From an uncultured Clostridia bacterium (lineage in GTDB: Bacteria; Bacillota; Clostridia; Christensenellales; Borkfalkiaceae), in NCBI GenBank assembly GCA_947631195.1, contig CANRKK010000007.1, positions 1-64,000 of the forward strand: 64,000 nucleotides of DNA, written 5' to 3'. The notes beneath the pieces are model-generated. The model was not told the DNA's origin and ran no database searches. It was given only the letters and a program-made list of their open reading frames with translations. Each line of letters starts with the position of its first letter. The first letter of the stretch is position 1. The position numbers and the translations under genes are program-made. Of this stretch, positions 266 through 63,323 are shown piece after piece.

Positions 266-453
266 AAATAATAAACGGCGCAAGCAAGCTGCGCTTGCGC
301 CAGCGCACTCAATTTGCGCATACCTGCGCTTTGGCAGTGGGAATTGCCGCGATTATATAATATGCGCGCCCTTATTAATCGCGGCAAGGGCGGCTGGCCG
401 CCCAAAATCACGAAAAATTTGAGTGCGCGCAACCGCACGAAAATTTTTGTGAA
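266..453 (+). repeat. R1 five-hairpin element, copy a
   Basis: Hairpins in order: H1 GGCGCAAGC/GCTTGCGCC (277-301), H2 GCGCA/TGCGC in the linker, H3 TTGCCGCGATTA/TAATCGCGGCAA (344-387), H4 GGGCGGC/GCCGCCC, and H5 (408-453) with inner stem GTGCG/CGCAC and A/T-rich outer arms. H5 sits 7 bp beyond the niaR stop codon and can act as its terminator. Confidence 0.85.
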
Positions 454-459
454 AAAGTA

Positions 460-969
460 TTATATCTCTATCAAAAACCCTGCGGCGCGGAGCTGCTGCT
501 CTATCCCGTCCAACGTCTTTTCGCTGTCGGCGGTGACCGTGTGGTAGTGGTAGCCGTCGGTGACGCTCATCAGCGGCTTGCTTGCGCCCGATTTTAAGGA
601 GCGGTACAGCTCCTCCACGTGGGTGCGGTTATACAGATCCAGCCGCGCGGTGATTTTGCCGTACAGGCGGTGGTTGACTGAAATATCCTCTATCCTGCCG
701 CCCGCCCCGATTATCAGGTTGCCCTCGTCCACAATCTGTTCAAAGGTGTGGCGGCACTTGAAAACCCTTTCGGCGCGGACCTCGGCTTTTAAAACGTAGC
801 CGCGGTTGGTGGCGGTGATATCGTACCCGTTGGCGCGCAAAATTGCTATGTCCTGCACTATCACCTGCCGCGAAACGTTGAATTTTTCGGCTATCACGGC
901 CGCGGGAAGGGGATTTTCCGCGTTGCCGATAAGGCTTAAAATCTCCTCCCGCCGCTTTTCGGCTTTCAT
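460..969 (-). CDS. niaR: Niacin-responsive transcriptional repressor NiaR
   Basis: The 169-residue protein has an N-terminal winged helix of the HTH_11 type (about residues 5-60) followed by a 3H domain. Histidines at 74, 100, 141 and 143 are candidates for the metal/nicotinate-binding residues that name the domain. NiaR (YrxA) proteins repress NAD synthesis and niacin uptake genes when nicotinic acid is available. The gene is last in nadB-nadC-niaR and its start overlaps the nadC stop by 4 bp, so it is translationally coupled and probably autoregulated through the operator ahead of nadB. Domain order, length and context agree. Confidence 0.9.
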   Translation of the reverse strand: MKAEKRREEILSLIGNAENPLPAAVIAEKFNVSRQVIVQDIAILRANGYDITATNRGYVLKAEVRAERVFKCRHTFEQIVDEGNLIIGAGGRIEDISVNHRLYGKITARLDLYNRTHVEELYRSLKSGASKPLMSVTDGYHYHTVTADSEKTLDGIEQQLRAAGFLIEI

Positions 970-1832
970 TCTTCCTCCATTACGGGGTGCAGGTTTTTGA
1001 GGGACAGATCGAGTATGGGCGCGGAGTGCGTCAGCGCCCCGCTGGAGACAAAGTCAACCCCCGTCTCTATTATTTTTGCTATATTTTCCCGCGTGACGTT
1101 GCCGCTGCACTCCGTTTGGGCGCGCCCCGCGATTATTTTTACCGCCTCTTTCATGTCCTCTACGGACATATTGTCGAGCATTATTATATCGGCGCCCGCC
1201 TCCGCGGCCTCCCGCGCCTGTTCGATATTTTCGACTTCAATCTCTATTTTACGCACGAACGGGGCGTACTGTTTTGCCATATACACGGCGTTTGTTACGC
1301 TGCCCGCCGCGCCTATGTGGTTGTCCTTTAAGAGTATGCCGTCCGAGAGGTTATAGCGGTGGTTGTTGCCCCCGCCCACCTTTACGGCGTACTTTTCGAA
1401 TATGCGCATGTTGGGGGTGGTTTTGCGGGTGTCGAGAAGTTTCGTCCCGCTGCCCTTTAAAAGCTCCACCATCTGCCGCGTGTAGGTGGCTATGCCGCTC
1501 ATGCGCTGCAAATAGTTGAGGGCGACCCTCTCCCCCGAGAGCAGCACGCGGATATCGCCCACGATATCGGCGAGGAGCCGGCCCTTTTTTACCTCGTCCC
1601 CGTCCTTGACGTACGCCTTTACCCACGTTCTGCCGTCCAAAATTTTAAAAGTGCGCTCAAAGACTTCCAGCCCGCATATAATGCCGTCCTGCTTGCATAT
1701 CAGCTGCACGCTGCCCTTTCTGTATTCGGGCATAACGGCGTTTGTGCTGACGTCCTCGTTGGAGATATCCTCCCTCAGCGCCATTTTTATGAGCTCGTCC
1801 GCGTTAAGTGCGACCGAAATGGGGTTTATCAT
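966..1832 (-). CDS. nadC: Nicotinate-nucleotide pyrophosphorylase (carboxylating)
   Basis: The 288-residue protein converts quinolinate and PRPP to nicotinate mononucleotide in de novo NAD synthesis. The family signatures are visible: DTRKTTP (about residue 134), GGGNNHRYNLSDGILLKDNH and, near the C-terminus, the phosphate-binding FVSSGALTHS. Length is typical. It overlaps nadB upstream by 29 bp and niaR downstream by 4 bp, so the three genes form one transcript. Confidence 0.95.
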   Translation of the reverse strand: MINPISVALNADELIKMALREDISNEDVSTNAVMPEYRKGSVQLICKQDGIICGLEVFERTFKILDGRTWVKAYVKDGDEVKKGRLLADIVGDIRVLLSGERVALNYLQRMSGIATYTRQMVELLKGSGTKLLDTRKTTPNMRIFEKYAVKVGGGNNHRYNLSDGILLKDNHIGAAGSVTNAVYMAKQYAPFVRKIEIEVENIEQAREAAEAGADIIMLDNMSVEDMKEAVKIIAGRAQTECSGNVTRENIAKIIETGVDFVSSGALTHSAPILDLSLKNLHPVMEEE

Positions 1833-3129: not shown

Positions 3130-3164
3130 ATTGCCTGTTCTGTTCTATAAATAAATTACCTGAA

Positions 3165-3193
3165 ATTATACAGTAAAACTTTACACCTGTCAA
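3165..3193 (-). promoter_or_regulatory. nadB operon promoter
   Basis: On the minus strand TTGACA (3193-3188), a 17-bp spacer and TATAAT (3170-3165) make a consensus sigma-A promoter. The spacer itself contains the palindrome GTAAA-N2-TTTAC, a second possible repressor half-site pair. Confidence 0.8.
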
Positions 3194-3205: not shown

Positions 3206-3225
3206 CCTTTACAAAAAATAGTTCA

Positions 3226-4346: not shown

Positions 4347-5795
4347 ATGAAAACTAAAATTTTAACCGCGTTTCTGGCGGTGACCGCCGCCGCGTGCTGC
4401 TCGTTCGGGCTTGCCGCCTGCAACAACGGCAACCTTTCCGATTCCGGCGTGAACGACGTTCCCGGGAACGTTGAGGACTTTGACGTGAGCGGCGACCCCG
4501 ACTATGTGGGCAACTCCGACCGCGGCAAGGGACTGCTGTTTGAACTCAACGCGGACAACACCTACACCGTCACGGGACAAAATCCCGAAACGGCTACCGC
4601 CGACATTACCGTTCCCGAAACGTACAACGACTTGCCCGTGACCGCCATCGCCGCACAGGCGTTTACCGGCGCGGAGATTGCAAGCGTTTACATTTCCGCA
4701 AGCATAAAATCGGTGGGCGCGAACGCGTTCAGCTCCTGCGGCAACCTGGTTAGCGTGTTGGTTTCGCCGAGCGTCGAACAGATAGGCGCGCGCGCGTTCA
4801 GCAACTGCAAGAGTCTGCGGGCGGTGATTTTTTCGGGCGAAAGCGCTCTCGGCTCTATCGACGAGTCGGTGTTTGAAAGCTGTGAGTCCCTCGTTAACTT
4901 TACCGTGCCCGACAGCGTAGTTTCGATAGGCAAGCAGGCCTTCCAGGGCTGCACAAGCCTCAAGTCCGTGAATATCGGCGACGGCGTGAAGGATATCGGC
5001 GAGAGGGCCTTTTACAGGTGCACCTCCCTCGGCGAAGTCAACTTCGGCTCCTCCTTAAAAACCATAGGCGATTCGTCCTTTGAGGAGTGCACGGCGATAA
5101 AGAGCATTGCCGTGCCCGACAGCGTGGATTCCTTCGGCGAAAAAGTGTTCTATCACTGCAAGTCGCTTGAAAAGCTGACCGTGCCCTTTATAGGGGCAGC
5201 GCGGGAGTTTGCAAATATTCCCAAACCCGAAGCGCAGGCCGACGACGGCGAAGAGGGCGAGGAAGGCGGCGAGAGCGGCGGCCAGGAAAGCGGCAGCGTG
5301 GAAAAAACGCACCTGGGATACCTGTTCGGCGCACCAACGCACTATGACAACGACCAGACGAACGGCGACTATGTTCCCCAAACGCTTGAATACGTAAACG
5401 TTACGGGCGGGGAGAGAATTGCGGAACTTGCCTTTTCGTACTGCCGCAATATAAAGACGATAATTTTGGGCGACAGCATCCAAAGAATAGAGTTCAACGC
5501 GTTCGGCGAGTGCGGCGTGGAAAACCTTGTGCTCGGCACGGGGCTCGAAAGGATTGCAACGGCGATTATGGGCAACCGCGCGGTTTATGATCCCTCCGCT
5601 TCCGATACCATACCTCTCTATATCTACTACAAGGGCACGGCCGCAGATTGGGGCAATATCGTGAAAGAGACGAACCCCGACAATCCCTACGAAAACAACC
5701 AAGCCTTTGACTCCGCGCCCAGATACTACTACAGCGAAACGGAGAAAGATTCTGAGCACTGGAGATTTGTGGACGGCATGCCCGTCGTTTACTGA
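4347..5795 (+). CDS. BspA-type leucine-rich-repeat lipoprotein
   Basis: The 482-residue protein has a signal peptide with a lipobox (LAAC, Cys25), so it is a surface lipoprotein. From about residue 75 it carries successive LRR_5 (BspA/TpLRR) repeats with recurring F-x-x-C-x-S/T-L, V/I-x-I-P-x-S-V and I-G-x-x-A-F patterns. An acidic Glu/Gly-rich insert at about 290-325 splits the repeat tract. Such proteins of gut Firmicutes are surface-exposed and often adhesive, but no ligand can be assigned. The start is fixed by GAGAGG seven bases upstream. Confidence 0.88.
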   Translation: MKTKILTAFLAVTAAACCSFGLAACNNGNLSDSGVNDVPGNVEDFDVSGDPDYVGNSDRGKGLLFELNADNTYTVTGQNPETATADITVPETYNDLPVTAIAAQAFTGAEIASVYISASIKSVGANAFSSCGNLVSVLVSPSVEQIGARAFSNCKSLRAVIFSGESALGSIDESVFESCESLVNFTVPDSVVSIGKQAFQGCTSLKSVNIGDGVKDIGERAFYRCTSLGEVNFGSSLKTIGDSSFEECTAIKSIAVPDSVDSFGEKVFYHCKSLEKLTVPFIGAAREFANIPKPEAQADDGEEGEEGGESGGQESGSVEKTHLGYLFGAPTHYDNDQTNGDYVPQTLEYVNVTGGERIAELAFSYCRNIKTIILGDSIQRIEFNAFGECGVENLVLGTGLERIATAIMGNRAVYDPSASDTIPLYIYYKGTAADWGNIVKETNPDNPYENNQAFDSAPRYYYSETEKDSEHWRFVDGMPVVY

Positions 5796-22970: not shown

Positions 22971-23165
22971 AACCGTTTGACTTGCCTTTGCGCTCGTCAA
23001 GCGGTTTTGATTTTAAGATATTCGGCCGCAGCGACACGCTGCCGTTTGACCGGCTTTATCGCTCGTCAAGCGGTTTTGATTTTAAGATATTCGGCCACAG
23101 CGACACGCTGCCGTTTGACAGGCTTTATCGCTCGTCAAGCGCTTTTATTTTTAAGATATTTTTTG
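22971..23165 (+). repeat. R8 tandem array of 69-bp hairpin units
   Basis: Units begin at 22973, 23042 and 23111, exactly 69 bp apart. Each has an inverted repeat CCG(C/T)TTGAC/GTCAAGCGG with a GGCTTTATCGCTC-like loop, followed by TTTTGATTTTAAGATATT. A related array with 84- and 67-bp spacing lies at 32.64-32.87 kb. Confidence 0.85.
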
Positions 23166-23432
23166 GGCGAAACGGGCGTTACGGCCTCAACAAGCGTTAG
23201 CCATTCATTCCGCTGAGCGCTACAGACCGTTTCAACAGGGTTCACAAAAATTTTCGTGCGGTTGCGCGCCCTCAAATTTTTCGTGAGTTTGGGCGGCGCT
23301 GCCGCCCTTGCCGCCATTCTAAGGGCGCGCATATTATATAATGGCGGCAATTCCCACCGCTCAGGCGCAGGTATGCGCAAATTGTGTGCGCTGGCGCAAG
23401 CGTAGCTTGCTTGCGCCGTTTATTATTTTAAA
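23162..23432 (-). repeat. R4 plus R1 five-hairpin element, copy b
   Basis: R4 (23162-23236) joins R1 (23241-23432), both reading on the minus strand. Stems: H5 23241-23286, H4 GGGCGGC/GCCGCCC (23291-23307), H3 TTGCCGCCATT/AATGGCGGCAA (23308-23350), H1 GGCGCAAGC/GCTTGCGCC (23393-23417). The H3 arms differ from copy a at three paired positions and remain complementary. Confidence 0.87.
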
Positions 23433-23451
23433 ATATTTAAAGCGTAAATTA

Positions 23452-23640
23452 AGCCGTGTCATTTCGAGTCGAAGGGAGACCCGCTGTAAGCGGGCAACCG
23501 AGCGAGATAATCCCCCTGTGGCTGCTCTTGGCCGGATAGGACGGCAACCCAAAAAACCGTGCCATCTTCTGTCGCCGACGGGGGGTGTCACAAAGTGACG
23601 GGTGGGAGAGGCGGTCGCCTTTCGCACTGTGCTGTTTCGC
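23452..23640 (+). repeat. R5 repeat (GTCATTTCGAG family)
   Basis: Begins GTCATTTCGAGTCGAAGGG and continues with GAGATAATCCCCC and GTCGCCGACGGGGG blocks that recur at 33.2, 46.8, 60.6 and 63.4 kb. No gene in this stretch. Confidence 0.7.
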
Positions 23641-28034: not shown

Positions 28035-29159
28035 TTAAACGCCGAACAGCTCTTTGAGCTCTTCTTCGTCTATTTTTGAGCCTATCACGCACAGCCTGCC
28101 CGTGTATGCGGCAGCGCCCTCGCGGATATCTATTTCACCGGGCACGTAGTCGAAGTGCAGCCACTTGCCGCCCTCGCCCGCAACTATGCCCTTTGCGCGG
28201 AGAATCGTGCCGAAGCGCACCGCCTCGGACAGCTGCGCCAGCATGCCGCCGAGTTCGTCGCGGCCGTAAGCCCTGCCCGTCTCCGCGCCCCAGCTTGTAA
28301 ATACTTCGTCGGCATGGTGGTGATGGTGGTGTTCGTGTTCGTCGTCATCATCGTCATGATGGTGGTGGCAGCAGTGGTCATGGTCGTGCTCGTCTTCGTC
28401 ATCGTCATCGTGATGGTGGTGGCAGCAGTGGCCATGTTCGTGCTCGTCTTCGTCATCGTCGTCGTGGTGGTGGCAGCAGTGGTCATGGTCGTGCTCGTCC
28501 CCGTCATCGTCGTCGTGGTGGTGGTGAACGTCCTCCATAAGTTCGTTAAGTTCGCTTTCAAGGGTGTCGGCGTGCTCCATTGCGGAGAGGATATCCTTGC
28601 CGTCCAGCTCCTGCCAGGGGGTGGTGACGATGGTTGCCGAGGGGTTGTGCGCGCGGACGAGCTCCACCGCCTTTGCAAGTTTTTCGGGGGAGGCGACGTC
28701 GGCGTGCGAAAAGATTATGCAGGCGGCGGTCTCTATCTGGTCGTTAAAGAATTCACCGAAGTTTTTCATATACATCTTGCACTTTCCCGCGTCCACTACG
28801 GTGGAGAAAGTGTTGATTTTTGCGTCGGTCAGCCCCGCTTCGGCAACGGCGCGGATAATGTCGGACAGCTTGCCCACGCCCGACGGCTCTATCAGAATCC
28901 TGTCGGGGTTATATTCCTGCTGCACTTTTTTAAGCGCCTTGGCAAAGTCGCCAACGAGCGAACAGCAGATGCAGCCCGAGTTGAGTTCGTTTATTTTTAT
29001 GCCCGCCTCGGCCAAAAAGCCGCCGTCTATGCCTATCTCGCCGAATTCGTTTTCAATCAGCACCAACTTTTCGCCCGCGTATGCTTCGCCGATAAGTTTT
29101 TTGATGAGCGTGGTCTTGCCTGCGCCCAAAAAACCCGAAAAAATATCAATCTTAGTCAT
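28035..29159 (-). CDS. CobW-type G3E GTPase with His/Asp-rich metal loop
   Basis: The 374-residue protein has P-loop GFLGAGKT (about 9-16), the GCICC metal-binding motif (about 62-66) and, in the middle (about 212-288), four imperfect repeats of the form HHHHDDDD...DEHDHDHCC. A CobW C-terminal domain follows. Such proteins are GTP-driven metallochaperones, with zinc or cobalt as the usual cargo; the histidine loop would store or sense the metal. The array is encoded by near-perfect DNA repeats (28313-28530), so it may vary in length between strains. Confidence 0.88.
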   Translation of the reverse strand: MTKIDIFSGFLGAGKTTLIKKLIGEAYAGEKLVLIENEFGEIGIDGGFLAEAGIKINELNSGCICCSLVGDFAKALKKVQQEYNPDRILIEPSGVGKLSDIIRAVAEAGLTDAKINTFSTVVDAGKCKMYMKNFGEFFNDQIETAACIIFSHADVASPEKLAKAVELVRAHNPSATIVTTPWQELDGKDILSAMEHADTLESELNELMEDVHHHHDDDDGDEHDHDHCCHHHDDDDEDEHEHGHCCHHHHDDDDEDEHDHDHCCHHHHDDDDDEHEHHHHHHADEVFTSWGAETGRAYGRDELGGMLAQLSEAVRFGTILRAKGIVAGEGGKWLHFDYVPGEIDIREGAAAYTGRLCVIGSKIDEEELKELFGV

Positions 29160-29282: not shown

Positions 29283-29999
29283 TCAATAGGTGAGCTTTCT
29301 GAAAGATCCGTCCTTTTTGTGGATCATTATGTTTGCATCCTGGTTTTCGGCGAGGGGTTTGCAGTACTCTATCGCCTCGGCCTGCGTGTTGAACAGCTTT
29401 ATCGCCTTTTCCGCGCCGGCGGCCTTTACCTGCCACATTCCGTCCGATTTTCTCAAGGATATATGATAGGTCTTGGTTGCGGGTTTAGCCGCAGTTTGCT
29501 CCTGCTTTGCGGGAGCGGGCTGTGCCGCGGGTTGTTCCTTCTTTGCGGGTGCGGGCTGTGCCGCGGGCTGCTCCTTCTTCGCGGGAGCGGGTTTAGCCGC
29601 GGGCTGCTCCTTCTTCGCGGGGGCAGGTTTTGCCGCGGGCTGCTCCTTCTTCGCGGGTTCCTTGGTATCTTTCACGTTTTCCTCCTTTTGGGCGCCGTCT
29701 TGCGCGGCGTCCGCCTGTTTTTCGTCTGCGGTTACGGGTTCCGTCTCAACCGTTCCGTCGGTTGCGCCCTCTTCCGCGGGGGATTCGGCGGGTTGTTCGG
29801 GCAACGCGTCCTCGGTCACGGGAGCCGTATCGGGTTGATCGACTTTTGCGGTTTCGTCCTCCGCGGGAGCGCTCTTTTTGCTTCCCTTTTTGCGGACCGC
29901 GCAAATTATGATAATCGTAACGATAATGACGGCAACCGCAATGATTGCCACCCATATCCAGTTGTATAGTCCTGCTGTTTGGTTTGTAAACCAGCCCAT
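29283..29999 (-). CDS. Membrane-anchored DUF2188-like protein with PAKKEQPAA repeats
   Basis: The 238-residue protein has one N-terminal transmembrane helix (about 14-36), an acidic Ala/Glu/Pro linker, then five 12-residue repeats (KPAPAKKEQPAA type, about 118-175), and a C-terminal domain (about 177-238) with VKAAGAEKAIKLFNTQAEAIEYCK and IMIHKKDGSFRKLTY, which fits DUF2188. The repeats look like a spacer that holds the domain away from the membrane. RBS GGAGG. Function unknown. Confidence 0.8.
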   Translation of the reverse strand: MGWFTNQTAGLYNWIWVAIIAVAVIIVTIIIICAVRKKGSKKSAPAEDETAKVDQPDTAPVTEDALPEQPAESPAEEGATDGTVETEPVTADEKQADAAQDGAQKEENVKDTKEPAKKEQPAAKPAPAKKEQPAAKPAPAKKEQPAAQPAPAKKEQPAAQPAPAKQEQTAAKPATKTYHISLRKSDGMWQVKAAGAEKAIKLFNTQAEAIEYCKPLAENQDANIMIHKKDGSFRKLTY

Positions 30000-32639: not shown

Positions 32640-32870
32640 GGCGTGTCGCCGCAGCCGGGTTTCTTTATTGCGTTATTGCTTGATTGAGGCTTGCCGCAGT
32701 TCAAACGGCGGCGTATCGCCGCAAGCGTTCCGCTTGACCTTAGTATCTTTATTGCGTTATTGCTTGATTGGGGGTTGCCGCAGTTCAAACGGAGTGCCTC
32801 CGCTGTCTGGTATCTTTATTGCATAACCGCTTGATTGGGGTTTGCCGCAAGTCAAACAATTTTTTTAAGA
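32640..32870 (+). repeat. R8-type array, second site
   Basis: Three units marked by CTTTATTGC at 32663, 32747 and 32814 (spacing 84 and 67 bp), with GCTTGATTG and TTGCCGCA(A/G)TTCAAAC pieces. It is homologous to the 69-bp array after ypeB and follows a gene end in the same way. Confidence 0.7.
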
Positions 32871-32878
32871 TTTTAATG

Positions 32879-33140
32879 GGCGAACCGAGCGTTGCGGCCT
32901 CAACTTTCGGTATCCATTCATTCCGCTGAGCGCTACAATGCCGTTTCATCAGGGTTCACAAAAAAGCAGACATTCGACGATGTCTGCTTTTTTCGTGAGT
33001 TCTGGCGGCCAGCCGCCTTTGCGCCATAATTAAGGGCGCACCATAATATAATGGCGCAAATTCCCACCGCTCAGGCGCAAGTATGCGCAAATTGGGTCTT
33101 GCTGCGCAGGGAAACCCTGCTTGCAACATACATATTTAAA
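32879..33140 (-). repeat. R4 plus R1 five-hairpin element, copy d
   Basis: R4 (32879-32951) and R1 (32954-33140) read on the minus strand. H5 has inner stem AGCAGACAT/ATGTCTGCT, H4 GGCGG/CCGCC, H3 TTTGCGCCAT/ATGGCGCAAA (33018-33060), H1 inner stem CAGGG/CCCTG. Confidence 0.87.
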
Positions 33141-33164: not shown

Positions 33165-34012
33165 TGTCATTTCGAGGGCGGAGCCCGAGATAATCCCCCC
33201 GTGGGCGGGTCGTGGTAGGATAGAAGGGCAACACAAACAACCGTGCCCTCTTCCGTCGCCGACGGGGGAGGGTGTTACGAAGTGACGGGTGGGAGCATCG
33301 GTTGCCTTTTTACGTCACTCCCATCACCCGCTGCGCAGCCAGCTTTCTCACACGGCGCAAGGAATAACGCCGTGTTCGGGCACCGTGCGCGCCTTGCACT
33401 ATGCGCTCACTCATCTCGCTCGGCACGCACAGCGCACTGTGCTGTGCTATGAAATGCCGCGCTCATCCTTACTAAAGGGAGCCAAGGGGGAAAGCGGTGT
33501 TATCCTGCCCCGAGCAACCCACGGGGGGATTCTCTCACTCAATCGCCCACTGCGTGGGTCTCATATCGTTCGAAATGACACGGAGTAAGTTGCATTGACA
33601 TTATTTTAAAGGTCGCTGCGCGACAGATTCTTCGTCGGGCTGCGCCCTCCTCAGAATGACAGGAGGAGGGTGTTGCAAGTTCGCACAAAATGACAAGCCT
33701 TCTTGCGTTGCAATTATTTAAAATGCGGGCGCGCCGTTCGGCGCGCCCGCTAATTATTAAATTATAAAACTGCCTTTACGAAGTCCTGCGGCGGTAGAAG
33801 CGAGTTATGCACGCCGCCCGGGGATTTCAAGCGGTTAGAAGCAAGCAGCGCATACGAAATCCTGCGGCGGGTAGAAGCGAGCAGAGCAAGGAAAGCGAGC
33901 ACCGACGACAGGAGTGTACATAGACGTACACGTCGTACCGAAGGCGTTAGCCTTACTTAGGCGGCGCGGAGCTTGACACCGCTATGCGACGCTTATACAC
34001 GCCGCCCGGGAG
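33165..34012. repeat. Repeat island: R5, R2, R6, hairpin, R3
   Basis: R5 at 33165-33300, R2 at 33340-33487 (variant stem), R6 (ATTCTTCGTCGG...CAGAATGACA) at 33607-33665, a perfect GCGGGCGCGCC/GGCGCGCCCGC hairpin at 33725-33750, and a long R3 with internal duplication at 33771-34012 that ends at the parB stop. No gene is supported here. Confidence 0.7.
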
Positions 34013-40202: not shown

Positions 40203-40312
40203 TCTAAAGTCGCTGCGCGACAGATTCTTCGTCGGGCTTCGCCCTCATCTGCCGTTTCCCAAAGGGAACCCTCGGCAGGGCGTCGCTTCGCTCGCACAAA
40301 ATGACACGGTTT
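40203..40312 (+). repeat. R6 repeat with internal hairpin
   Basis: CGCTGCGCGACAGATTCTTC, CTGCCGTTTCC...GGGAACCCTCGGCAGGG and ACAAAATGACA blocks. The same order is found at 63475-63650. Confidence 0.65.
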
Positions 40313-40328: not shown

Positions 40329-40693
40329 ATTTTAAATAATAAACGGCGCAAGCAAGCTACGCTTGCGCCAGCGCACCCAATTTGCGCATACTTGCGCCTG
40401 AGCGGGGTGAATTGCCGCGATTATATAATACGTGCGCCCTTATTAATCGCGGCAAGTGGGACGAGCGAGGCATTTCATAGCACAGCACAGTGCGCTGTGT
40501 GTGCCGCGTGAGGCCGCTTGCGGCCGCTACTCTGCCGAAGGTTCCCCAAAGGGGAAACGGCAGAGCGAGATGAGTGAGCGCATACGTCCCGCGCGAACGG
40601 TGCCCGAACACGTTGTTGTCCTTACGCCGTGTGAGAAAAAGCCCTTAAAATCACAAAAATACCAAGCACGGCCTGCTTGGTATTTTTGTGAAC
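40329..40693 (+). repeat. R1 five-hairpin element, copy e, with R2 inside
   Basis: H1 40345-40369, H2 GCGCA/TGCGC, H3 40412-40455, then a R2 element (about 40456-40638) at the H4 position, then H5 40651-40693 with a perfect 18-bp stem (inner ACCAAGCA/TGCTTGGT). A R4 copy follows at 40693-40780. Confidence 0.87.
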
Positions 40694-40780
40694 TTTTTTG
40701 AAACGGTTTGTAGCGCTCAGCGGAATGAATGGCTAACGCTTTTTGAGGCCGCAACGCACGTAATGTCCAAAAGAAATATT
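40693..40780 (+). repeat. R4 repeat
   Basis: GAAACGG, GTAGCGCTCAGCGGAATG and GGCTAACG blocks, directly after R1 H5. The remaining 40781-40880 is A/T-rich and holds no recognised feature. Confidence 0.75.
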
Positions 40781-40880
40781 CTTTCTTTTTTGCCTTTTGC
40801 CGACAACGTATGAGGTCACGAAAAACTCAACTTTTTTGGGAAAAACTCAACACGTATTGACAATTCAGGGCAAAACGGAG

Positions 40881-46518: not shown

Positions 46519-47032
46519 TTAGCTGCCGTTGCGGCGTGTATAAGCGTCGTTCTGCTGTGTTGCGCTGCGGCAACTTTCAGTAAGGCTAACGCCTTCGGTG
46601 CGACACGTACGTCTATGTACACTCCTGTCGCAAAATCCGCAGGCGCCTCGTTCTGCTTGCTTCTAACCGCTTGCTAACTTCGTAAAAACAACGTCTTGCT
46701 CGTTTCTGACCCGTTGCATACTTCGTAAATGCAGCTCCCGCAATTTTAAAAATATGTACCGCGCCCGTTAAGCCGTGTCATTTTGAGCGTGAGCGAAGCG
46801 GTAAGCGAAATAATCCCCCCGTGGGCTGGTCGAGGTCGGATGAAACGCATCTCCCCTTGGCTCCCTTTAGTAGGACGAGCGCGGAGCTCTCAAAACAGCA
46901 TAGTGCGCTGTTTTGCCGCGCGAGATGAGTGCGCGCATAGTGCAAGGCGCGCACGGTGCCCGAACACGGCGTTGTCCTTACGCCGTGTGAGAAAGCTGTC
47001 ACCGATAGGTGACTGAGGGGATTGTCATTCAA
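46519..47032 (-). repeat. Repeat island: R3, R5, R2
   Basis: R3 (46519-46745, minus orientation) starts at the jag stop. R5 follows at 46775-46860 and R2 at 46856-47032 (plus orientation). The stretch 47033-47210 holds a R8-like fragment and a GTCGCCGAC block. No gene is supported. Confidence 0.68.
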
Positions 47033-47210: not shown

Positions 47211-47444
47211 ATGTTGAAACGGTATTGTAGCGCTCAGCGGAATGTATGGCTAACGCGTTTTAAGGAACTAACGCCCGTTTCGCCCAAAAGATTATTAAAA
47301 AACAATAAACGGCGCAAGCAAGCTATGCTTGCGCCCGCGCACTCAATTTGCAAACACCTTTGCCTTAGCGAGGTGAATGCCTGCGATTATATAATCGTGG
47401 GCCCTTAATAAATCGCAGGCACGGCCTGCCGAGCTTTTCGTGAA
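47211..47444 (+). repeat. R4 plus R1 element, copy f, with internal deletion
   Basis: R4 (47211-47290) leads into R1 (47293-47444). H1 GGCGCAAGC/GCTTGCGCC (47311-47335); H2 here is GCAAA/TTTGC, both arms changed from GCGCA/TGCGC; H3 GCCTGCGATT/AATCGCAGGC (47379-47420). H4 and the left half of H5 are missing. The junction falls in CGCAGGC, which occurs twice in copy i, so a deletion between direct repeats explains it. Confidence 0.82.
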
Positions 47445-47482
47445 CATATTTCAGATGGTTTTCGGATAAAACACATCATTAA

Positions 47483-49208: not shown

Positions 49209-49415
49209 TTTTGAAACGGTATTGTAGCGTTCAGCGGAATGTATGGCTAACGTGTTTTGAGGAACTGACGTACGTTTCGCCCAAAAGATTATTTTAAAAA
49301 TAATAAATGGCGCAAGCAGGCTACGCTCGCTCGGAATGACACGTTTCATCGTACCGCGTACATATTTAAAACGTCGCTGCGCGACAGAATGACAGAGGAG
49401 CGGAGCTCCTCCGCT
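49209..49415 (+). repeat. R4, truncated R1 H1 and R6 remnants
   Basis: R4 at 49209-49290, then AAAATAATAAATGGCGCAAGC (start of R1 H1, breaking off at about 49330), then R5/R6 fragments. Nothing else is seen in 49102-49463 apart from the flanking hairpins. Confidence 0.65.
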
Positions 49416-49418
49416 TTA

Positions 49419-49456
49419 CAAAAAATCCCAAGCACGAGTTGCTTGGGATTTTTGTG
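49419..49456 (-). terminator. pckG terminator (H5-type hairpin)
   Basis: AAAAATCCCAAGCA/TGCTTGGGATTTTT with a five-base loop, 8 bp beyond the pckG stop. The stem sequence is the same as that of the solo H5 at 49162. Confidence 0.9.
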
Positions 49457-49463
49457 AACTGAC

Positions 49464-55126: not shown

Positions 55127-55316
55127 TTCACAAAAATCTCGCGCCGTTGCGGGCGCTGCGATTTTTCGTGAGTTTGTGGGGCCAGCCCCACTTGCCGCGA
55201 TTAATAAGGGCGCACATATTATATAATCGCGGCAATTCACCCCGCTCAGGCGCAAGTGTGCGCAAATTGGGTCTTGCTGCGCAAAAGCGTGGTTTTGCTT
55301 GCAACATAATTATTTT
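55127..55316 (-). repeat. R1 five-hairpin element, copy g (lysS terminator)
   Basis: Minus orientation. H5 55127-55171, H4 GTGGGGC/GCCCCAC (55176-55191), H3 TTGCCGCGATTA/TAATCGCGGCAA (55192-55235), H1 with inner GCAAAA/TTTTGC. H5 begins 2 bp after the lysS stop and is the only visible terminator. Confidence 0.87.
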
Positions 55317-55804
55317 TTAAATAATTTTTGTCTTGCTCGTTTCTAACCGCTTGCTAACTTCGTAAAGGCAGACTTCGTAAGGGCAACCGCACCACCCCCC
55401 TTGGCTCCCCTTAGTAAGCGGGAGCTGTCACCGATAGGTGACTGAGGGGATTGTCACCTTAAATTTACACAAATATAATTATTTCTTTTTTATATTTTGT
55501 CCCACCCACCCCCCCAATAATGTTAAAAAATAGAGGGAACGGCACCCACCGTGGCTGCTCTTGGCTGTTTGAAACGGCACCTTAAATTACCTCGACCATC
55601 CCACCAGGGGATTACCTCGCTTACCGCTACGCTCACGCTCGGAATGACACGTTTCAACAAACCGCGTACATATTTTAATACGTCGTTGCGTGACAGATTC
55701 TTCGTCGGGCTACGCACTCTCGCCAAAGGCGAGGGCAGCGCTCCGCCCTCCTCAGAATGACAGAGAGGTGGGAGGGCGCGCAACCGCACGAAAATTTTTG
55801 TGAA
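55317..55804. repeat. Repeat island: R2/R3 fragments, R7, R5, R6, half H5
   Basis: Contains R3 and R2 tail fragments (55330-55460), R7 with the C-run CCCACCCACCCCCCC (55501-55515, G run on the minus strand), R5 (55593-55640), R6 (55676-55770) and a right half of H5 (55773-55804). No gene is supported. Confidence 0.68.
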
Positions 55805-55810: not shown

Positions 55811-56004
55811 TAAAATAATAAACGTTGCAAGCAAAACCACGCTTTTGCGCAGCAAGACCCAATTTGCGCATACCTGCGCCTGAGCTGAGGTGAATTTGCG
55901 CCATTATATTATGGCGCGCCCCTAAAAATGGCGCAAAGAGGAGCAGAGCTCCTCAAACTCACGAAAAATTTGAGGGCGCGCAACCGCACGAAAATTTTTG
56001 TGAA
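55811..56004 (+). repeat. R1 five-hairpin element, copy h, next to a start codon
   Basis: H1 GCAAAA/TTTTGC, H2 GCGCA/TGCGC, H3 TTTGCGCCATT/AATGGCGCAAA (55895-55937), H4 GAGGAGC/GCTCCTC, H5 55960-56004. The ATG of the decarboxylase gene is 14 bp further on. Confidence 0.87.
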
Positions 56005-56017
56005 CTCAAAAAAGACC

Positions 56018-57355
56018 ATGTATGATTATTTAATTTACAACCAACTGAAAAAATACGGCGGGGTCCAAAAGACCTTTCACATGCCCGGTCACAAGGGGAG
56101 GGGCGAATTCAAAAAACTGTTCCCCGTGGCGGACATTGACGTAACCGAGCTTAGCTATTCGGACAATCTTGCCGACCCGTCGGGCGTGATAGCCGACGCG
56201 CAGTGCGAGATCGCCTCGATATTGGGCGCGGCGCGCTCCTACATACTCACGGAGGGCTCCTCTTTGGGCATTTTTGCCATGCTGTATGCGGCGGCGGAGC
56301 GGGGCAACAAGGTGATAGTTCCCCGCAACTCCCACCAGAGCGTCTGGAACGCCTGCCGCGTGCTCGGCCTCGAGCCCGTCGTGGTACAGGGCGAAACCAA
56401 AGACGGCGTCATCTTGCCGCCCTCGCCCGCCGAGGTGGAGCACATAGCCAAAAACGACCTTACCGTTGCGGGACTTATTGTTGTCAGTCCCGACTACTAC
56501 GGCAACGTTGCGCCCCTTGCGGAATACTCCGAAATACTCAAAAAATACAATAAGATACTGATGGTGGACGGCGCGCACGGCGCGCACCTCGCGTTCATGC
56601 CCGAAAGGGAGGGCTACGCGGGCAAGTTCGCCGATATCTGGGTGGACGGCGCGCACAAAAATTTATGCACGCTGACGCAGGGCGCGATACTCAACATAAA
56701 CGACTCCGACCTGTTCGGGGGCGCGCTCGGCGGGCTATCGCTTTTTGGCACGACGTCGCCCTCCTATCCCATAATGGCTTCGGTGGAATACGGCGTAAAG
56801 CAGCTTGCAAACAATCCCGCGCACGCGCAAAAGGTCGCGGCGGAGATTATTTCCTTAAGGGATAGCAAGGGGATATCCGTATATCCCTCGGCCGACCCGT
56901 TCAAGTTTGCGGTGGACTGTGGGGCGGGCGGCGTTTCTGCCGACCTTGCCGCCGCCGCGCTGGAAAAAAAGGATATATACTGCGAGTTTTCGGACGGCAG
57001 ATACCTGCTTTTCTACCTGTCCCCCGCGGCGGACATAAAGGACGTAAAAAAGGCGATAAAAGTTTTGCGCGGGATACTCTCGGGCAAAAAGCTGGCGGGC
57101 ACCTACCGCCCGCGCGGGGAGATAAGGGCGCAGGCCCGCTCCTACAGCTTCCAGTACGCCCTTAAAAAGCCCGCCGAATGGGTTGCCCCCGCAGAGGCGG
57201 CGGGCAGGATGTGCGCGCAGAATTTCGGCGTCGCTCCCCCCTGTATTCCCGTGTGCGTGGCGGGAGAAATGATAACCGAGGAGGCCCTCCGCGCGATAAG
57301 CGGCTGTAAGACGTTCGGGCTTTCGGGCGGAAAAATAAAGGTGGTGGCAAAGTGA
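56018..57355 (+). CDS. Orn/Lys/Arg decarboxylase family PLP enzyme (YaaO type)
   Basis: The 445-residue protein has the group III decarboxylase pattern: TFHMPGHKG, LTEGSSLGIFAML, VDGAHGAHLAF and the PLP lysine in DGAHKNLCTLTQGA. It is shorter than biosynthetic lysine/arginine decarboxylases, like Bacillus YaaO. It precedes tmk as in Bacillus. The ATG follows R1 H5 by 14 bp and has no clear RBS, so its expression signals must lie in or beyond the repeat. Confidence 0.9.
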   Translation: MYDYLIYNQLKKYGGVQKTFHMPGHKGRGEFKKLFPVADIDVTELSYSDNLADPSGVIADAQCEIASILGAARSYILTEGSSLGIFAMLYAAAERGNKVIVPRNSHQSVWNACRVLGLEPVVVQGETKDGVILPPSPAEVEHIAKNDLTVAGLIVVSPDYYGNVAPLAEYSEILKKYNKILMVDGAHGAHLAFMPEREGYAGKFADIWVDGAHKNLCTLTQGAILNINDSDLFGGALGGLSLFGTTSPSYPIMASVEYGVKQLANNPAHAQKVAAEIISLRDSKGISVYPSADPFKFAVDCGAGGVSADLAAAALEKKDIYCEFSDGRYLLFYLSPAADIKDVKKAIKVLRGILSGKKLAGTYRPRGEIRAQARSYSFQYALKKPAEWVAPAEAAGRMCAQNFGVAPPCIPVCVAGEMITEEALRAISGCKTFGLSGGKIKVVAK

Positions 57356-57972: not shown

Positions 57973-57974
57973 AA

Positions 57975-60038: not shown

Positions 60039-60041
60039 TCC

Positions 60042-61187
60042 CGCCAACGGGTGATAAACTTCGCAATACTGTGTTGCGCTCCGCTTGCCTGCGGGTCACG
60101 TACGTCTGTGTACGCTTCCCTTGTCAATGCTCGCGCTCCTTGTCTTGCTCGTTTCTGACCCGTTGCCAACTTCGTAAATACAGGGGTGCGGCGTGCATAA
60201 CTCGCTTCTACCCACCGCCGAATTGCAAGGCTGTGACTTCGTAAGGGCAATGTTCTGTTTGCTTCTAACCGCTTGAACTCCCGCCAACTGCGTGCATAAC
60301 TCGCTTCTACCCACCGCCGAGTTAAAAAGCCGTGACTTCGTAAATACAACCGCACGAACCCCCTTGGCTCCCCTTAGTAAGAGGGAGAGGCTCCGTTTCC
60401 CCCCCCGTGGCTTCTTCCCCTTGGGGGGGGGAAGCTCCCGCATAGCGGGTGATGGGAGGGGGATTATCACCTTAAATTAATTTATCAAATAATTTTCTTT
60501 TTTATTTTGTCCCACCCACCCCCCCAATATTGTTAAAATATATGGGAACGCATACTGCAATTTTAAAATAATTGCCCCGCCAATTAAGCCGTGTCATTTC
60601 GAGTCGAAGGGAGACCCGCTGTAAGCGGGCGACCGAGCGAGAGAATCCCCCCGTGGTTGCTCGGGGCTGTTTGGAACGGCAACCCAACCTTGGCTCCCTT
60701 TCGCAAGGGGAGCTGGCTGCGAAGCAGACTGAGGGGATTGTCACCTTAAAAATAACCATATTAATAATTTTCTTTTTATATTTTGTCCCACTCACCCCCC
60801 AATATTGTTAAAAAAACAAGTGGACGGCACCGCCTACACCCTTGGCTCCCTTTAGTAGGACGAGCGCGGATTTCTCAAAACAGCACAGTGCGCTGTTTTG
60901 CCGCGCGAGATGAGTGAGCGCATACGTCCCGCGCGAACGGTGCCCGAACACGGCGTTGTCCTTACGCCGTGTGAGAAAGCTGTCACCGATAGGTGACTGA
61001 GGGGATTGTCATTCAAGTTTTAAGTGCGGCAATTTCAATCAGGCGGTAACGCAATAAAGACACTATGCTCAAGCGTTATGCTTGCCCCCCTCAGTCCGCT
61101 GCGCGTTCAGCTCCCCCCACAACGTGGGGGCAGCCAAGACGGGATGGTGGTCGGCGACGGAAGAGGGCAAGGGAAAGCGGAATTCAC
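60042..61187. repeat. Largest repeat island, left part
   Basis: R3 with tandem duplication of its outer half (60042-60360), R7 (60511-60525), R5 (60589-60740), decayed R7 (60787-60800), R2 (60840-61013) and an R8/GTCGCCGAC remnant (61014-61180). Reading frames here are short and differ between copies; no gene is supported. Confidence 0.7.
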
Positions 61188-61461
61188 ATTTTAAAATAAT
61201 TAACGGCGCAAGCAGGGTTCCCCTGCGCCCGCGCACCCAATTTGCGCATACCTGCGCCTGAGCGAGGTGAATGCCTGCGATTATATAATCGTGGGCCCTT
61301 AATAAATCGCAGGCAGAGGAGCGGAGCTCCTAAAAATCACGAAAAAGCGCAGGCACGGCCTGCCGAGCTTTTTGTGAAATATTTTTGAAACGGCATTGTA
61401 GCGCTCAGCGGAATGTATGGCTAACGAGTTTTGAGGTTGTACCGCTCGTTTCGCCCAAAAA
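61188..61461 (+). repeat. R1 five-hairpin element, copy i, plus R4
   Basis: H1 GGCGCA...TGCGCC with inner CAGGG/CCCTG, H2 GCGCA/TGCGC, H3 GCCTGCGATT/AATCGCAGGC (61273-61314), H4 AGGAGC/GCTCCT, H5 61337-61378, followed by R4 (61379-61461). Confidence 0.86.
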
Positions 61462-61650
61462 GCAACGTGACGTTGCATCCATGTATTTATACTGCAATTA
61501 CGAAGTTGCAACCGCACGAAAATTTTTGTGAACATTTTTAAAATAATAAAAGTCGCTGCGCGACAGATTCTTCGTCGGGTTGCACCCTCCTCAGAATGAC
61601 AGGAGGGGGGAGTCGCGCAACCGCATGAAAACTTTTGTGAACAAGGAACA
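61462..61650 (+). repeat. R6 and two half H5 hairpins
   Basis: A right half of H5 (61507-61533), R6 (61550-61612) and another half H5 (61612-61642) lie in series. These look like nested insertion or recombination scars. Confidence 0.6.
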
Positions 61651-61960
61651 TTTTTAAAATAATTCACGGCGCAAGCAAGCTACGCTTGCGCCAGCGCACC
61701 ACATTTGCGCACACCTGCGCCTGAGCGGTGGGAATTTGCGCCATTATATAAAATGTGCGCCCCTAAAAATGGCGCAAAGGGACGAGCGCGGACTTCTCAA
61801 AACAGCACAGTGCGCTGTTTTGCCGCGCGAGATGAGTGCGCGCATAGTGCAAGGCGCGCACGGTGACCGAACACGGCGTTGTCCTTACGCCGTGTGAGAA
61901 GCAGAGCCGCCCAAACTCACGAAAAAAGCAGACATCGTCGAACGTCTGGTTTTTTGTGAA
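61651..61960 (+). repeat. R1 five-hairpin element, copy j, with R2 inside
   Basis: H1 61668-61692, H2 GCGCA/TGCGC, H3 TTTGCGCCATT/AATGGCGCAAA (61735-61778), a R2 element (61779-61902) at the H4 position, H5 61917-61960 with inner AGCAGAC/GTCTGGT. The trmN6 ATG is 24 bp downstream. Confidence 0.86.
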
Positions 61961-61983
61961 CATTTTTTAAACAGGAGTGCCCC

Positions 61984-62664
61984 ATGCTTAAACAGGGCGA
62001 AGTGACCGAAGAATTTTTCGGCGATAAAAAGATAATACAAAACGTTTCGCTGTACAGGTTTACCTCGGACAGCATCCTTTTGTCGCGGTTTGCGCGGGCA
62101 AAGGCGGGGGACGTGGTTGCCGATTTTTGTTCGGGCAGCGGGGTTGTGGGCTTTCACTTCATGTGCCTCAACCCAAACATAAAATCTCTGTCCCTGTTTG
62201 AAATGCAGCCCGAACTTGCCGATATGTCTTGGCGGACGGCGCAGCTCAACGGCTGGCAGTGCGAGGTGGTCTGCACAAAACTGCAGGATATCCCCCGCGC
62301 GTACGACGACAAGTTTTCCCTCGTGTTGTGCAACCCGCCCTACGAGCGGGGCGGCTTTGAAAAAGAGGACTTCAAAAAGGCCGTCTGCCGCAAGGAGATA
62401 ACCATCACCCTGCCCGAAATTGTGGACGCGGCGTTCCGGAAACTGAAATTCGGCGGCAGACTGGCCATTCTGAACCGCGCCGACCGCACCGCCGAACTTA
62501 TTTACCTTTTAAAGAGCAAAAATTTAGAGCCCAAAAGACTGCAATTCGTTGCGGGCACGGCGGGCGCAAAACCCTACCTTGTGATGGCTGAGGCGGTTAA
62601 GGGGGGGAAGGAGGGGGTGGAGGTGTTGCCCCCCCTCGTCAATACTACCGAAAGCGGATTATAA
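61984..62664 (+). CDS. trmN6: tRNA1(Val) (adenine37-N6)-methyltransferase family protein
   Basis: The 226-residue protein has the SAM-binding VVADFCSGSGVVGF (about 38-52) and catalytic NPPY (CNPPYERGG, about 116). It is the YabB/TrmN6 family and lies next to rsmI as in Bacillus. The family normally ends some 15-20 residues later; here KGGKEGVEVLPPLV is followed by NTTESGL and a stop that come from R3 DNA, so the C-terminus is replaced. RBS AGGAG. Confidence 0.9.
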   Translation: MLKQGEVTEEFFGDKKIIQNVSLYRFTSDSILLSRFARAKAGDVVADFCSGSGVVGFHFMCLNPNIKSLSLFEMQPELADMSWRTAQLNGWQCEVVCTKLQDIPRAYDDKFSLVLCNPPYERGGFEKEDFKKAVCRKEITITLPEIVDAAFRKLKFGGRLAILNRADRTAELIYLLKSKNLEPKRLQFVAGTAGAKPYLVMAEAVKGGKEGVEVLPPLVNTTESGL

Positions 62665-63142
62665 GCGGCGCATAACTTTGTTGCCTTTACGTTTTTGCTA
62701 AGTCACGTACGTCTATGTACGCTCCTGTCGCAAAATCCGCAGGCGCCTCGTTCTGCTTGCTTCTAACCGCTTCTAACTTCGTAAAGGCAAGGGGCTTGCA
62801 CGTTTCTGACCCGTTGCCAACTACGTAAATGCAGGGCGCGCCTTGCATAACTCGCTTCTACCCACCGCAGGACTTCGTAAAGGCAAGGGGAACCCTTGGC
62901 TCCCTTTAGTAGGATGAGCGCGGATTTCTCAAAACAGCACAGTGCGCTGTTTTGCCGCGCGAGATGAGTGCGCGCATAGTGCAAGGCGCGCACGGTGCCC
63001 GAACACGGCGTTGTCCTTACGCCGTGTGAGAAAGCTGTCACCGATAGGTGACTGAGGGGATTGTCACTTTAAAATTTACATACATATTAATAATTTTCTT
63101 TTTTATTTTGTCCCACCCACCCCCCCAATATTGTTAACACAG
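62660..63142. repeat. Repeat island: R3, R2, R7
   Basis: R3 (62660-62890) begins within the last codons of trmN6, R2 lies at 62894-63066, and R7 with the C run at 63112-63126. R7 joins directly to the R1 copy that follows. Confidence 0.7.
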
Positions 63143-63323
63143 TTCACAAAAATTTTCGTGTGGTTGCGCACACTCAAATTTTTCGTGAGTTTGAGGGCTG
63201 CTCGCCCTCTTTGCGCCATTTTTAAGGGCGCGCCAAAATATAATGGTGCAAATTCACCCCGCTGAGGCGCAGGTATGCGCAAATTGTGTCTTGCTGTGCA
63301 AAAGCGTGGTTTTGCTTGCAACA
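63143..63323 (-). repeat. R1 five-hairpin element, copy k
   Basis: Minus orientation. H5 63143-63188 with inner GTGTG/CACAC, H4 GAGGGC/GCCCTC, H3 TTTGCGCCATT/AATGGTGCAAA (63210-63252, one G:U pair), H1 inner GCAAAA/TTTTGC. Confidence 0.86.

What the first reader, a model, noticed from the sequence alone, without database searches (positions are those of the whole stretch)
266..63323. R1: a dispersed five-hairpin element whose stems covary between copies
Eleven R1 copies (266, 23241, 25262, 32954, 40329, 47293, 55127, 55811, 61188, 61651, 63143) share five hairpins in fixed order. Stem sequences change on both arms together. H3: CCGCGATTA/TAATCGCGG, CCGCCATT/AATGGCGG, GCGCCATT/AATGGCGC, CCTGCGATT/AATCGCAGG. 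H2: GCGCA/TGCGC against GCAAA/TTTGC. H5 inner: GTGCG/CGCAC, GTGTG/CACAC, GCGCC/GGCGC, ACCAAGCA/TGCTTGGT, AGCAGACAT/ATGTCTGCT. H1 and H4 behave the same way. H3 loop and linker sequence stays conserved, and the loop is not self-complementary, which fixes an orientation. Compensatory change in all five stems points to selection on a folded RNA or single-stranded DNA, not simple copying. I know of no named family with this layout.
Basis: seen in the sequence. Interest (0 to 1): 0.92.

Follow-up and report, generated by a model that had tools for sequence, protein, structure and literature searches.

The report
Mobile five-hairpin repeat in gut Clostridia
A roughly 185-base non-coding repeat, scattered in dozens of copies between the genes of one family of uncultured gut bacteria, keeps the same chain of five hairpins while the hairpin sequences change on both arms together, so it is probably a mobile piece of DNA whose folded shape matters more than its exact sequence.

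Summary
R1 is real. The source genome has at least 59 strong copies. Against a tree-based null, 10 of 13 significant column pairs in a structure-free alignment are stem pairs (H1, H3, H5), and 11 of 12 in a model-fitted one, which adds H2. H4 did not reach significance. Rfam has no match in the window. R1 occurs in 55 of 61 sampled genomes of its genus, in two related genera of the family, and in none of 385 sampled class-mates outside the family.
Comparing matching sites points to a mobile element: between G000 and a close relative, G006, R1 is shared at 4 of 17 compared intervals; empty and opposite-orientation sites exist.
Stems are almost purely Watson-Crick (G·T 0.64%, against 7.5% in 21 tRNAs from the fetched loci), which points to folded DNA rather than RNA. 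Hairpins are replaced as blocks at orthologous sites, so part of the covariation is exchange between copies.
Best reading: a non-autonomous mobile repeat without terminal inverted repeats, acting as folded single-stranded DNA. Its enzyme is unknown. Closest kinds: bcr1, BOX, MITEs.

The parts
267..452 (+). R1 copy, five hairpins intact
   Evidence: 167.5 bits
23242..23427 (-). R1 copy, intact
   Evidence: 170.1 bits; no R1 between the matching flanks in G006, L061
25271..25455 (+). R1 copy, intact (highest score)
   Evidence: 197 bits; no R1 between the matching flanks in G006, L061
32956..33137 (-). R1 copy, intact, H5 of type AGCAGACAT/ATGTCTGCT
   Evidence: (170.9 bits)
40335..40504 (+). 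R1 copy, H1-H3; another repeat nested in H4
   Evidence: 135 bits
40506..40691 (+). tail of the same copy (nested repeat, then H5 at 40638-40693, ACCAAGCA/TGCTTGGT type)
   Evidence: (24.6 bits)
47301..47468 (+). R1 copy with H4 and the left half of H5 deleted; the only GCAAA/TTTGC H2 in the window
   Evidence: 108 bits
49086..49203 (+). damaged R1 copy, mainly the H4 end and H5
   Evidence: (37.7 bits)
49299..49457 (+). damaged R1 copy, half of H1 joined to H4-H5 with other repeat sequence between
   Evidence: (43 bits)
55128..55315 (-). R1 copy, intact, directly after a class II aminoacyl-tRNA synthetase gene (D/K/N type)
   Evidence: 184.5 bits
55754..55804 (+). half H5 hairpin just upstream of the next copy, matching that copy's own H5
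55814..56003 (+). R1 copy, intact, at the start of a decarboxylase-like gene (overlaps the first start codon of the ORF 55928-57355)
   Evidence: (171.4 bits)
61195..61377 (+). R1 copy, intact
   Evidence: 177.1 bits
61658..61822 (+). R1 copy, H1-H3, with the D6 repeat nested in H4; its H5 ends near 61961
   Evidence: (122.7 bits)
63144..63332 (-). R1 copy, intact, H5 of type GTGTG/CACAC
   Evidence: (165.3 bits)

Best explanation
R1 is a non-autonomous mobile DNA element of about 185 bp that spreads through intergenic DNA and is recognised in folded single-stranded form. Anatomy, 5' to 3': an AT-rich lead (TTTTAAAATAATNNACG); H1 (4-bp outer stem, conserved AA, 6-bp inner stem); linker ending AATTT; H2 (5 bp, 4-nt loop); linker CTNAGCGGNGTGAAT; H3 (10 bp, large partly conserved loop); H4; then H5, which ends the element with TCAC-G-[stem]-GTGA and keeps one unpaired G. 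Shown: dispersal, site turnover, conserved order of hairpins, covariation, nearly strict Watson-Crick pairing, replacement of hairpin blocks at orthologous sites. Inferred: that the folded strand is DNA, that folding is needed for movement, and that a trans-acting protein reads hairpin shape plus conserved unpaired bases. The protein is unknown. Stems change because mainly pairing is selected, and new stem versions then spread through copies by gene conversion or recombination.
For: Dispersal: at least 59 copies of 90 bits or more in G000; 55 of 61 sampled genus genomes. Turnover between G000 and the close relative G006, over fetched intervals with alignable flanks and R1 on at least one side: in both at 4 of 17, only in G000 at 9, only in G006 at 4 (absence means no nhmmer hit at E<=0.001; some hits are fragments; one interval, L050/L065, rests on short repeat-like matches). 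Empty sites: L140, L133; L074, L226, L178, L168. One orthologous gap holds R1 in opposite orientation in two species (L058, L112). Covariation. Pairing: G·T 30 of 4,699 against 33 of 439 in 21 tRNAs. No significant linkage of hairpin types within G000: 0 of 10 pairwise tests p<0.05, 33 copies, lowest p 0.06. Block replacement: H1 outer stem and H5 in L046/L215, H2 and H5 in L059/L071. Layout kept in G331 and G409 of other genera with new stems, including the unpaired G of H5; TCACG itself in 65 of 72 copies.
Against: No mobilising enzyme found: Y1_Tnp 0 in G000 and 18 of 61; IS91-type Y2 2 of 61; IS110 4 of 61, one above cut-off; reverse transcriptase 25 of 61 (two matches in G000, none in several other R1-rich genomes); integron integrase 0 of 61 above cut-off. 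No clear target-site duplication. G·T exceeds A·C slightly (30:13 over all copies, p=0.014; 30:18 over distinct stems, p=0.11), which a + strand RNA would also give. The tRNA control is small. Over 120 genus copies five of ten hairpin pairs do show linkage at uncorrected p<0.05. At 4 of 17 intervals R1 is shared, one at a similar distance from the same gene, so some copies persist or sites recur. No transcript or protein data here.
Confidence: 0.5

Rival explanations
1. R1 is an ordinary MITE-like dispersed repeat moved as double-stranded DNA in the past. The palindromes stay perfect because hairpin arms correct each other (template switching or gene conversion), with no selection for a folded strand.
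For: Block exchange and concerted change are seen: H2 or H5 replaced whole at orthologous sites; two neighbouring H5 hairpins identical within a species but different between species (L046, L172). Near-absence of G·T fits arm correction. The H3 loop (entropy 0.85) and the H4-H5 linker (1.12) are on average no more conserved than stems.
Against: Some unpaired letters are far more conserved than stem letters (AA in H1 entropy 0.0, the AATTT linker end mostly 0-0.1, most of the GTGAAT letters about 0.1-0.2, the unpaired G of H5 0.18; inner stems of H1, H3 and H5 0.75-0.82), and the G persists in G331 and G409; correction alone does not explain this. The linker before H3 co-varies with the H4 arm across H3. 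No terminal inverted repeats.
Confidence: 0.25
2. R1 is a dispersed RNA element (regulatory leader, 3' UTR stabiliser or small RNA) selected at RNA level, spread by copying.
For: Covariation; slight excess of G·T over A·C; in 14 of 38 cases in relatives where the downstream gene is on the same strand, the 3' end lies within 30 nt of it.
Against: G·T only 0.64%. Orientation to genes is mixed and differs at one orthologous locus. Most compared sites differ between G000 and G006. The H5 T-run is not conserved. No Rfam hit in the window, none above threshold in four further loci.
Confidence: 0.15
3. R1 is an integron-like or other site-specific recombination unit in which H5 is the attachment hairpin: copies are flanked by the same H5 on both sides and exchange it.
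For: In 12 of 27 copies with an H5-like end just upstream, that hairpin matches the copy's own H5 (5.8% of all pairs). Solo and half H5 hairpins exist. Tandem arrays occur.
Against: No integron integrase above cut-off in 61 genomes; 0 of 72 copies carry the attC-type boxes; at least two upstream H5s are remains of internally deleted R1 copies (L221; L047); 6 of 8 full tandem neighbours have unlike H5.
Confidence: 0.1

Closest known systems
bcr1 and the bcr1-bcr18 repeats of the Bacillus cereus group
   Same: Group-restricted, intergenic, 100-400 bp, bcr1 in tens of copies, mobile features, described as MITE-like; a conserved structure is listed for Bcr1 in PMC2267715 (passages of PMC3446304, PMC6542083 and PMC2267715 seen).
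   Different: Different bacteria. PMC6542083 links bcr mobility to a TTTAT motif; in R1, TTTAT or its complement lies within 12 nt of the 5' start in 30 of 72 copies against 21.6 for shuffled letters, so it is no hallmark. The original bcr1 paper was not held, so no hairpin-by-hairpin comparison was made.
Pneumococcal BOX, RUP and SPRITE repeats
   Same: Small dispersed intergenic repeats with predicted folds; BOX is modular (passages of PMC3049150 seen).
   Different: BOX and RUP have terminal inverted repeats likened to those of named IS elements; R1 has none and no IS partner was found. BOX modules are sequence blocks; R1 keeps hairpin order with changing stems.
Integron attC sites
   Same: Folded single-stranded DNA recognised by shape and unpaired bases, little sequence conservation, tandem arrays (search listing with starts of abstracts only; details recalled).
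   Different: R1 has five hairpins in series, no attC boxes in 72 copies, no integron integrase above cut-off.
REP/RAYT and IS200/IS605 (Y1 HUH) elements
   Same: Hairpin ends acting as single-stranded DNA, no terminal inverted repeats (recalled).
   Different: No Y1 transposase found in the R1-rich source genome; 18 of 61 genus genomes have one.

Membership tests
MITE (as defined in the passage of PMC3049150) | terminal inverted repeats | tested here: not met
   5' end TTTTAAAATAATNNACG and 3' end TTTTTGTGAAC are not inverted copies (read)
MITE (as defined in the passage of PMC3049150) | target-site duplication | tested here: inconclusive
   144 copies: longest shared flank 5.77 nt on average against 5.28 shuffled; 9 nt or more in 9.7% against 2.5%, the longest from other repeats on both sides or tandem copies
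MITE (as defined in the passage of PMC3049150) | AT-rich | tested here: not met
   G+C 0.41-0.60 over 157 hits; window 0.53
MITE (as defined in the passage of PMC3049150) | highly base-paired; also small, intergenic, non-coding and mobile | tested here: met
   mobility is inferred from site comparison, not observed; 8 copies overlap called genes, probably at doubtful starts
Any Rfam family | score at or above the family threshold | tested here: not met
   0 hits in the window; two sub-threshold hits in four loci holding R1-type copies, one of them overlapping a copy at E 0.42
Integron attC | RYYYAAC ... GTTRRRY boxes (recalled) | tested here: not met
   0 of 72 copies on either strand, shuffled mean 1.1; the tested sequences stop at the GTGA end
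Integron attC | integron integrase in the genome | tested here: not met
   0 of 61 genomes above the TIGR02249 cut-off; 59 of 61 have sub-cut-off matches (tyrosine recombinases by the family searched); no control genome was above it either
REP/RAYT, IS200/IS605 | Y1 transposase | tested here: not met
   0 in G000, 18 of 61 in the genus; none in R1-rich G000, G002, G006, G015, G029, G229, G429, but present in R1-rich G446 and G027
IS91/Helitron-like (Y2 HUH) | Y2 transposase | tested here: not met
   2 of 61 weak hits, one above cut-off, none in G000; the control set had no positive
IS110 (bridge RNA) | DEDD transposase | tested here: not met
   4 of 61, one over cut-off (G031), none in G000
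Group II intron or other retroelement | reverse transcriptase in carriers | tested here: inconclusive
   25 of 61 genomes, two matches in G000 and one each in R1-rich G429 and G446; none in R1-rich G002, G006, G015, G029, G229
bcr1 repeat | sequence or model match to bcr1 | not tested
   no bcr1 sequence was fetched; the original paper was not held

The most novel reading that the evidence does not exclude
R1 is a new class of mobile element that moves as a long folded single DNA strand read through a string of five hairpins plus an alternative helix (the linker before H3 with the H4 arm), moved by an unknown enzyme unrelated to the Y1, Y2, IS110 and integron systems tested, and its hairpins behave as exchangeable cassettes between copies.
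Probability: 0.22. Interest if true: 0.85.

Novelty: new variant of a known kind. Interest (0 to 1): 0.6.

Why it matters
R1 gives hundreds of natural copies in which shape is kept while sequence drifts (246 distinct hits in the window and the first 180 loci alone), together with filled, empty and altered sites in close relatives. That makes two open questions testable: what moves small structured repeats that have no terminal inverted repeats, and whether covariation in repeats reports RNA function, DNA folding or exchange between copies. It is also a warning for RNA discovery pipelines: strong covariation with almost no G·T pairs may mean DNA.

Tried and rejected
Known RNA family: Rfam gathering scan of the window, 0 hits; permissive scan of four loci gave an L20 leader candidate outside R1 and a weak miRNA-like hit overlapping an R1-like copy (E 0.42, taken as chance).

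Transcription terminator: the T-run after H5 suits this in G000, but in relatives the 3' arm is AATTTC, AATTTGT or GAAAAAGT; rejected as the conserved function.

Cis-regulatory leader: orientation to neighbouring genes is mixed (33 own-genome copies, 94 others) and differs at one orthologous locus; rejected as the general role. Gene calls come from a home-made codon-usage caller and misplace some starts.

Mobilisers: Y1, Y2, IS110, reverse transcriptase, integron integrase searched; none is present in all R1-rich genomes. TnpB, DDE families and other tyrosine recombinases were not tested as partners. The genomes are incomplete assemblies, so single absences are weak.

Horizontal carriers: no match in phage or plasmid records (one copy as query) nor an exact pattern in viral contigs.

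A hit outside the family (G286) lies on a tRNA-Arg gene; rejected.

Alternative pairing: L12 with L23, with H4 arms or with the H3 loop, and the H3 5' arm with its own loop, were at most about 1.6 sd above shuffles; L23 with the H4 3' arm was well above (11.03 against 10.18, sd 0.12, above all 300 shuffles). The shuffles ignore relatedness of copies.

H5 as attachment site: tempting, but full tandem neighbours mostly differ in H5 and at least two upstream H5s are remains of deleted copies; kept as a rival only.

RNAalifold's own consensus on A2 leaves out H4, the outer H1 stem and part of H2, and adds three pairs (14-16 with 200-202) that I take as spurious.

Rows dropped before counts: searches use 72 of 107 distinct full-length copies (75 after removing close duplicates, 74 after a length limit, two with nested repeats left out). 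One search used 100 sources (the window and 99 of the loci then held) and aligned the best 150 of 157 hits. One search counts those 150, three of them from other genera. One search uses 147 of them; its module tests use 33 own and 120 genus copies in which all five hairpins could be parsed. The 4,699 pairs leave out the H1 outer stem and H4, where registration is poor; with them G·T is 99, A·C 43 and other mismatches 191 of 5,867. Of the 21 control tRNAs, 19 come from genomes of the genus, one from a sister genus and one from outside the family (loci).

Literature: searches (9 of 9 listed; 20 of 56; 6 of 6; 8 of 8; 4 of 5; 6 of 12). No listed title describes this repeat; this is not proof that it is unpublished.
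Full report
WHAT WAS CHECKED. The 11 copies were extracted and aligned. They align from an AT-rich lead to H3, and the 8 intact ones on to the GTGA that closes H5. A covariance model from 72 diverse copies, five of them from the window, finds these same 11 as the best window hits and adds two damaged copies and one displaced tail. Two copies (40329, 61651) have another repeat nested in H4 and one (47293) has lost H4 and half of H5. The window has no tRNA and no Rfam match.

WHERE IT LIVES. The source genome G000 is 2.34 Mb in 81 contigs; the model finds 78 matches at E<=0.001, 59 of them at 90 bits or more, with 150 of 1,002 candidates scored, so this is a lower bound. By BLAST, 31 of 37 genomes of the genus (own included) and 0 of 24 from other families of the order have it. 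By model, 55 of 61 genus genomes (own included) have it. In an order-wide draw of 396 genomes it is in 11 of 12 of the genus and in 13 of 22 of six other genera of the family (two genera, g27 and g29, many g27 hits being weak); the one further hit lies on a tRNA-Arg gene. In a class-wide draw it is in 0 of 385 genomes outside the family. These large draws use stricter filters that lose weak matches. No match in phage or plasmid records or, by exact pattern, in viral contigs.

STRUCTURE AND COVARIATION. In a structure-free alignment, RNAalifold predicts 29 pairs, 25 of which change on both sides in at least one copy, though it leaves out H4. An R-scape-like test written here finds 13 significant column pairs of 16,110; 10 are exact stem pairs in H3, H1 and H5. 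With the model-fitted alignment, 11 of 12 significant pairs are model pairs and H2 is added; that alignment leans towards the model. H4 is not significant in either. In relatives of other genera (G331, G409) and a diverged genus member (G312) the same order of hairpins recurs with new stems; in G331 and G409 the unpaired G in H5 between TCAC and the inner stem is kept. Elements from six other g27 loci (L196, L197, L198, L202, L204, L210) share H1, the AATTTGC-type linker, H2 and a 3' hairpin but appear to have a different middle (read by eye).

WHAT IS CONSERVED. Over 72 copies, column entropy is 0.0 for the AA in H1, 0.18 for the unpaired G of H5, 0.13 for the outer H5 stem, 0.43 for the H2 stem, 0.48 and 0.53 for the linkers before and after H2, and 0.75-0.82 for the inner stems of H1, H3 and H5; but the H3 loop (0.85) and the H4-H5 linker (1.12) are not more conserved than stems.

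DNA OR RNA. In the five well-registered helices, G·T makes up 30 of 4,699 pairs (0.64%), A·C 13 and other mismatches 80; in 21 tRNAs from the fetched loci G·T makes up 33 of 439 (7.5%), p about 1e-19. Cells are not independent, so the p-value is only a guide. RNA stems tolerate G·U; here it is nearly absent. This favours folded DNA, or arm-to-arm correction of DNA palindromes. The slight excess of G·T over A·C (30:13; 30:18 for distinct stems) is too weak to assign a strand.

MOBILITY. Orthologous intergenic sites show R1 present, absent or different. L140, L133, L074, L226, L178 and L168 lack it where G000 has it. L112 has a different copy in opposite orientation where L058 has one. L097 has two other R1-like copies at the site of L059. 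Of 17 compared G000-G006 intervals with R1 on either side, 4 have it in both, 9 only in G000 and 4 only in G006; some hits are fragments and one interval (L050/L065) rests on short repeat-like matches. Ends are not inverted repeats and no clear target-site duplication is seen. The 3' end sits within 30 nt of the next called gene in 10 of 33 own copies and 43 of 94 others, against 0 of 33 and 7 of 94 for the 5' end, with genes in both orientations.

HAIRPINS AS EXCHANGEABLE BLOCKS. Among 33 parsed copies of G000, no pair of hairpins shows significant linkage of types (10 tests, lowest p 0.06, limited power); over 120 genus copies five pairs do at uncorrected p<0.05 (H1-H3, H1-H5, H2-H4, H3-H4, H4-H5). 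Two orthologous pairs show block change directly: in L046/L215 H2, H3 and most linkers are almost unchanged while the H1 outer stem changed on both arms, H4 has a compensated base pair and the inside of H5 is entirely different; in L059/L071 H2 and H5 differ (in L059 H5 also carries an extra insert) and the rest is nearly identical. In 12 of 27 copies with an H5-like end directly upstream, that hairpin matches the copy's own H5, against 5.8% of all pairs; in L046 and its relative L172 both H5s are the same within a species and differ between species. So part of the covariation is spread by exchange; but each new stem version must still have arisen as a matched pair of arms.

AN EXTRA CONTACT. 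The strongest non-stem signal joins the linker before H3 with the H4 arm. Within a copy this linker pairs with its own H4 3' arm better than with other copies' arms (11.03 against 10.18, sd 0.12); eight control pairings with arms of other hairpins are within about 1 sd of shuffles or below. This suggests a second, alternative helix enclosing H3, but it could also reflect joint inheritance of neighbouring segments (H3-H4 linkage).

MECHANISM. Best reading: R1 moves, or moved until recently, as a folded single DNA strand read by a trans-acting protein; pairing is selected, letters in stems are fairly free, letters at key unpaired sites are not. The order of hairpins, turnover and pairing statistics are shown; DNA as the folded strand, the link between folding and movement, and the protein are inferred. 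Y1, Y2, IS110, reverse-transcriptase and integron-integrase partners were looked for; none is present in all R1-rich genomes, though G000 has two reverse-transcriptase matches.

COMPARISON WITH THE KNOWN. The nearest described kinds are bcr1 repeats and pneumococcal BOX elements (passages seen). Both are small dispersed intergenic structured repeats with mobile features. R1 fails the MITE tests of terminal inverted repeats and AT-richness and the attC tests. It is therefore filed as a new variant of a known kind. The listings of the searches show no title on this repeat; that is not proof of absence from print. Motifs found by RNA pipelines that may instead be structured single-stranded DNA are discussed in PMC8632094 and PMC2864571 (passages seen).

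The reverse-transcriptase membership test was moved to inconclusive, the conservation of the H3 loop was stated more weakly, and 'closest species' was replaced by 'a close relative', because closeness was not tested.

Noticed in passing
window 46853-46939, 60838-60924, 61760-61846, 62892-62978: A second dispersed repeat (D6) with its own hairpins, found alone and nested inside H4 of an R1 copy (61651); L053 and L221 share such a nested insertion.
   Followed up: partly
window 40697-40785, 47214-47302, 49211-49299, 61385-61473, 23148-23224, 32861-32937: A third repeat family (D4/D20, TTGAAACGGTNTGTAGCGCTCAGCGGAATG...) that often starts a few bases after the 3' end of R1 or H5.
   Followed up: no
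window 33607-33676, 40204-40273, 55677-55746, 61547-61616, 63473-63542 and 23426-23468, 60561-60603: Further intergenic repeats (CAGATTCTTCGTCGGGCTGCGCCC..., GTGTCATTTCGAG...) near R1; intergenic regions look like mosaics of several families.
   Followed up: no
window 61482-61650: A stretch with an R1-like lead and R1-like half H5 ends but a different repeat between them, as if other repeats share or capture the R1 ends.
   Followed up: partly
L196, L197, L198, L202, L204, L210 (genus g27): Elements that share H1, linker and H2 with R1 and end in a hairpin but appear to have a different middle: probably a sister subfamily, in tandem in L196 and L197.
   Followed up: partly
window 28330-28526 and 29479-29658: Tandem repeats inside two predicted genes (28035-29159 and 29283-29999, minus strand).
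   Followed up: no
window 4347-5795: Predicted protein with BspA-type leucine-rich repeats (Pfam LRR_5).
   Followed up: no
G000 contigs C11, C27, C33, C41: R1 copies lie at the ends of several contigs, so the repeat probably breaks assemblies and copy numbers are underestimates.
   Followed up: no
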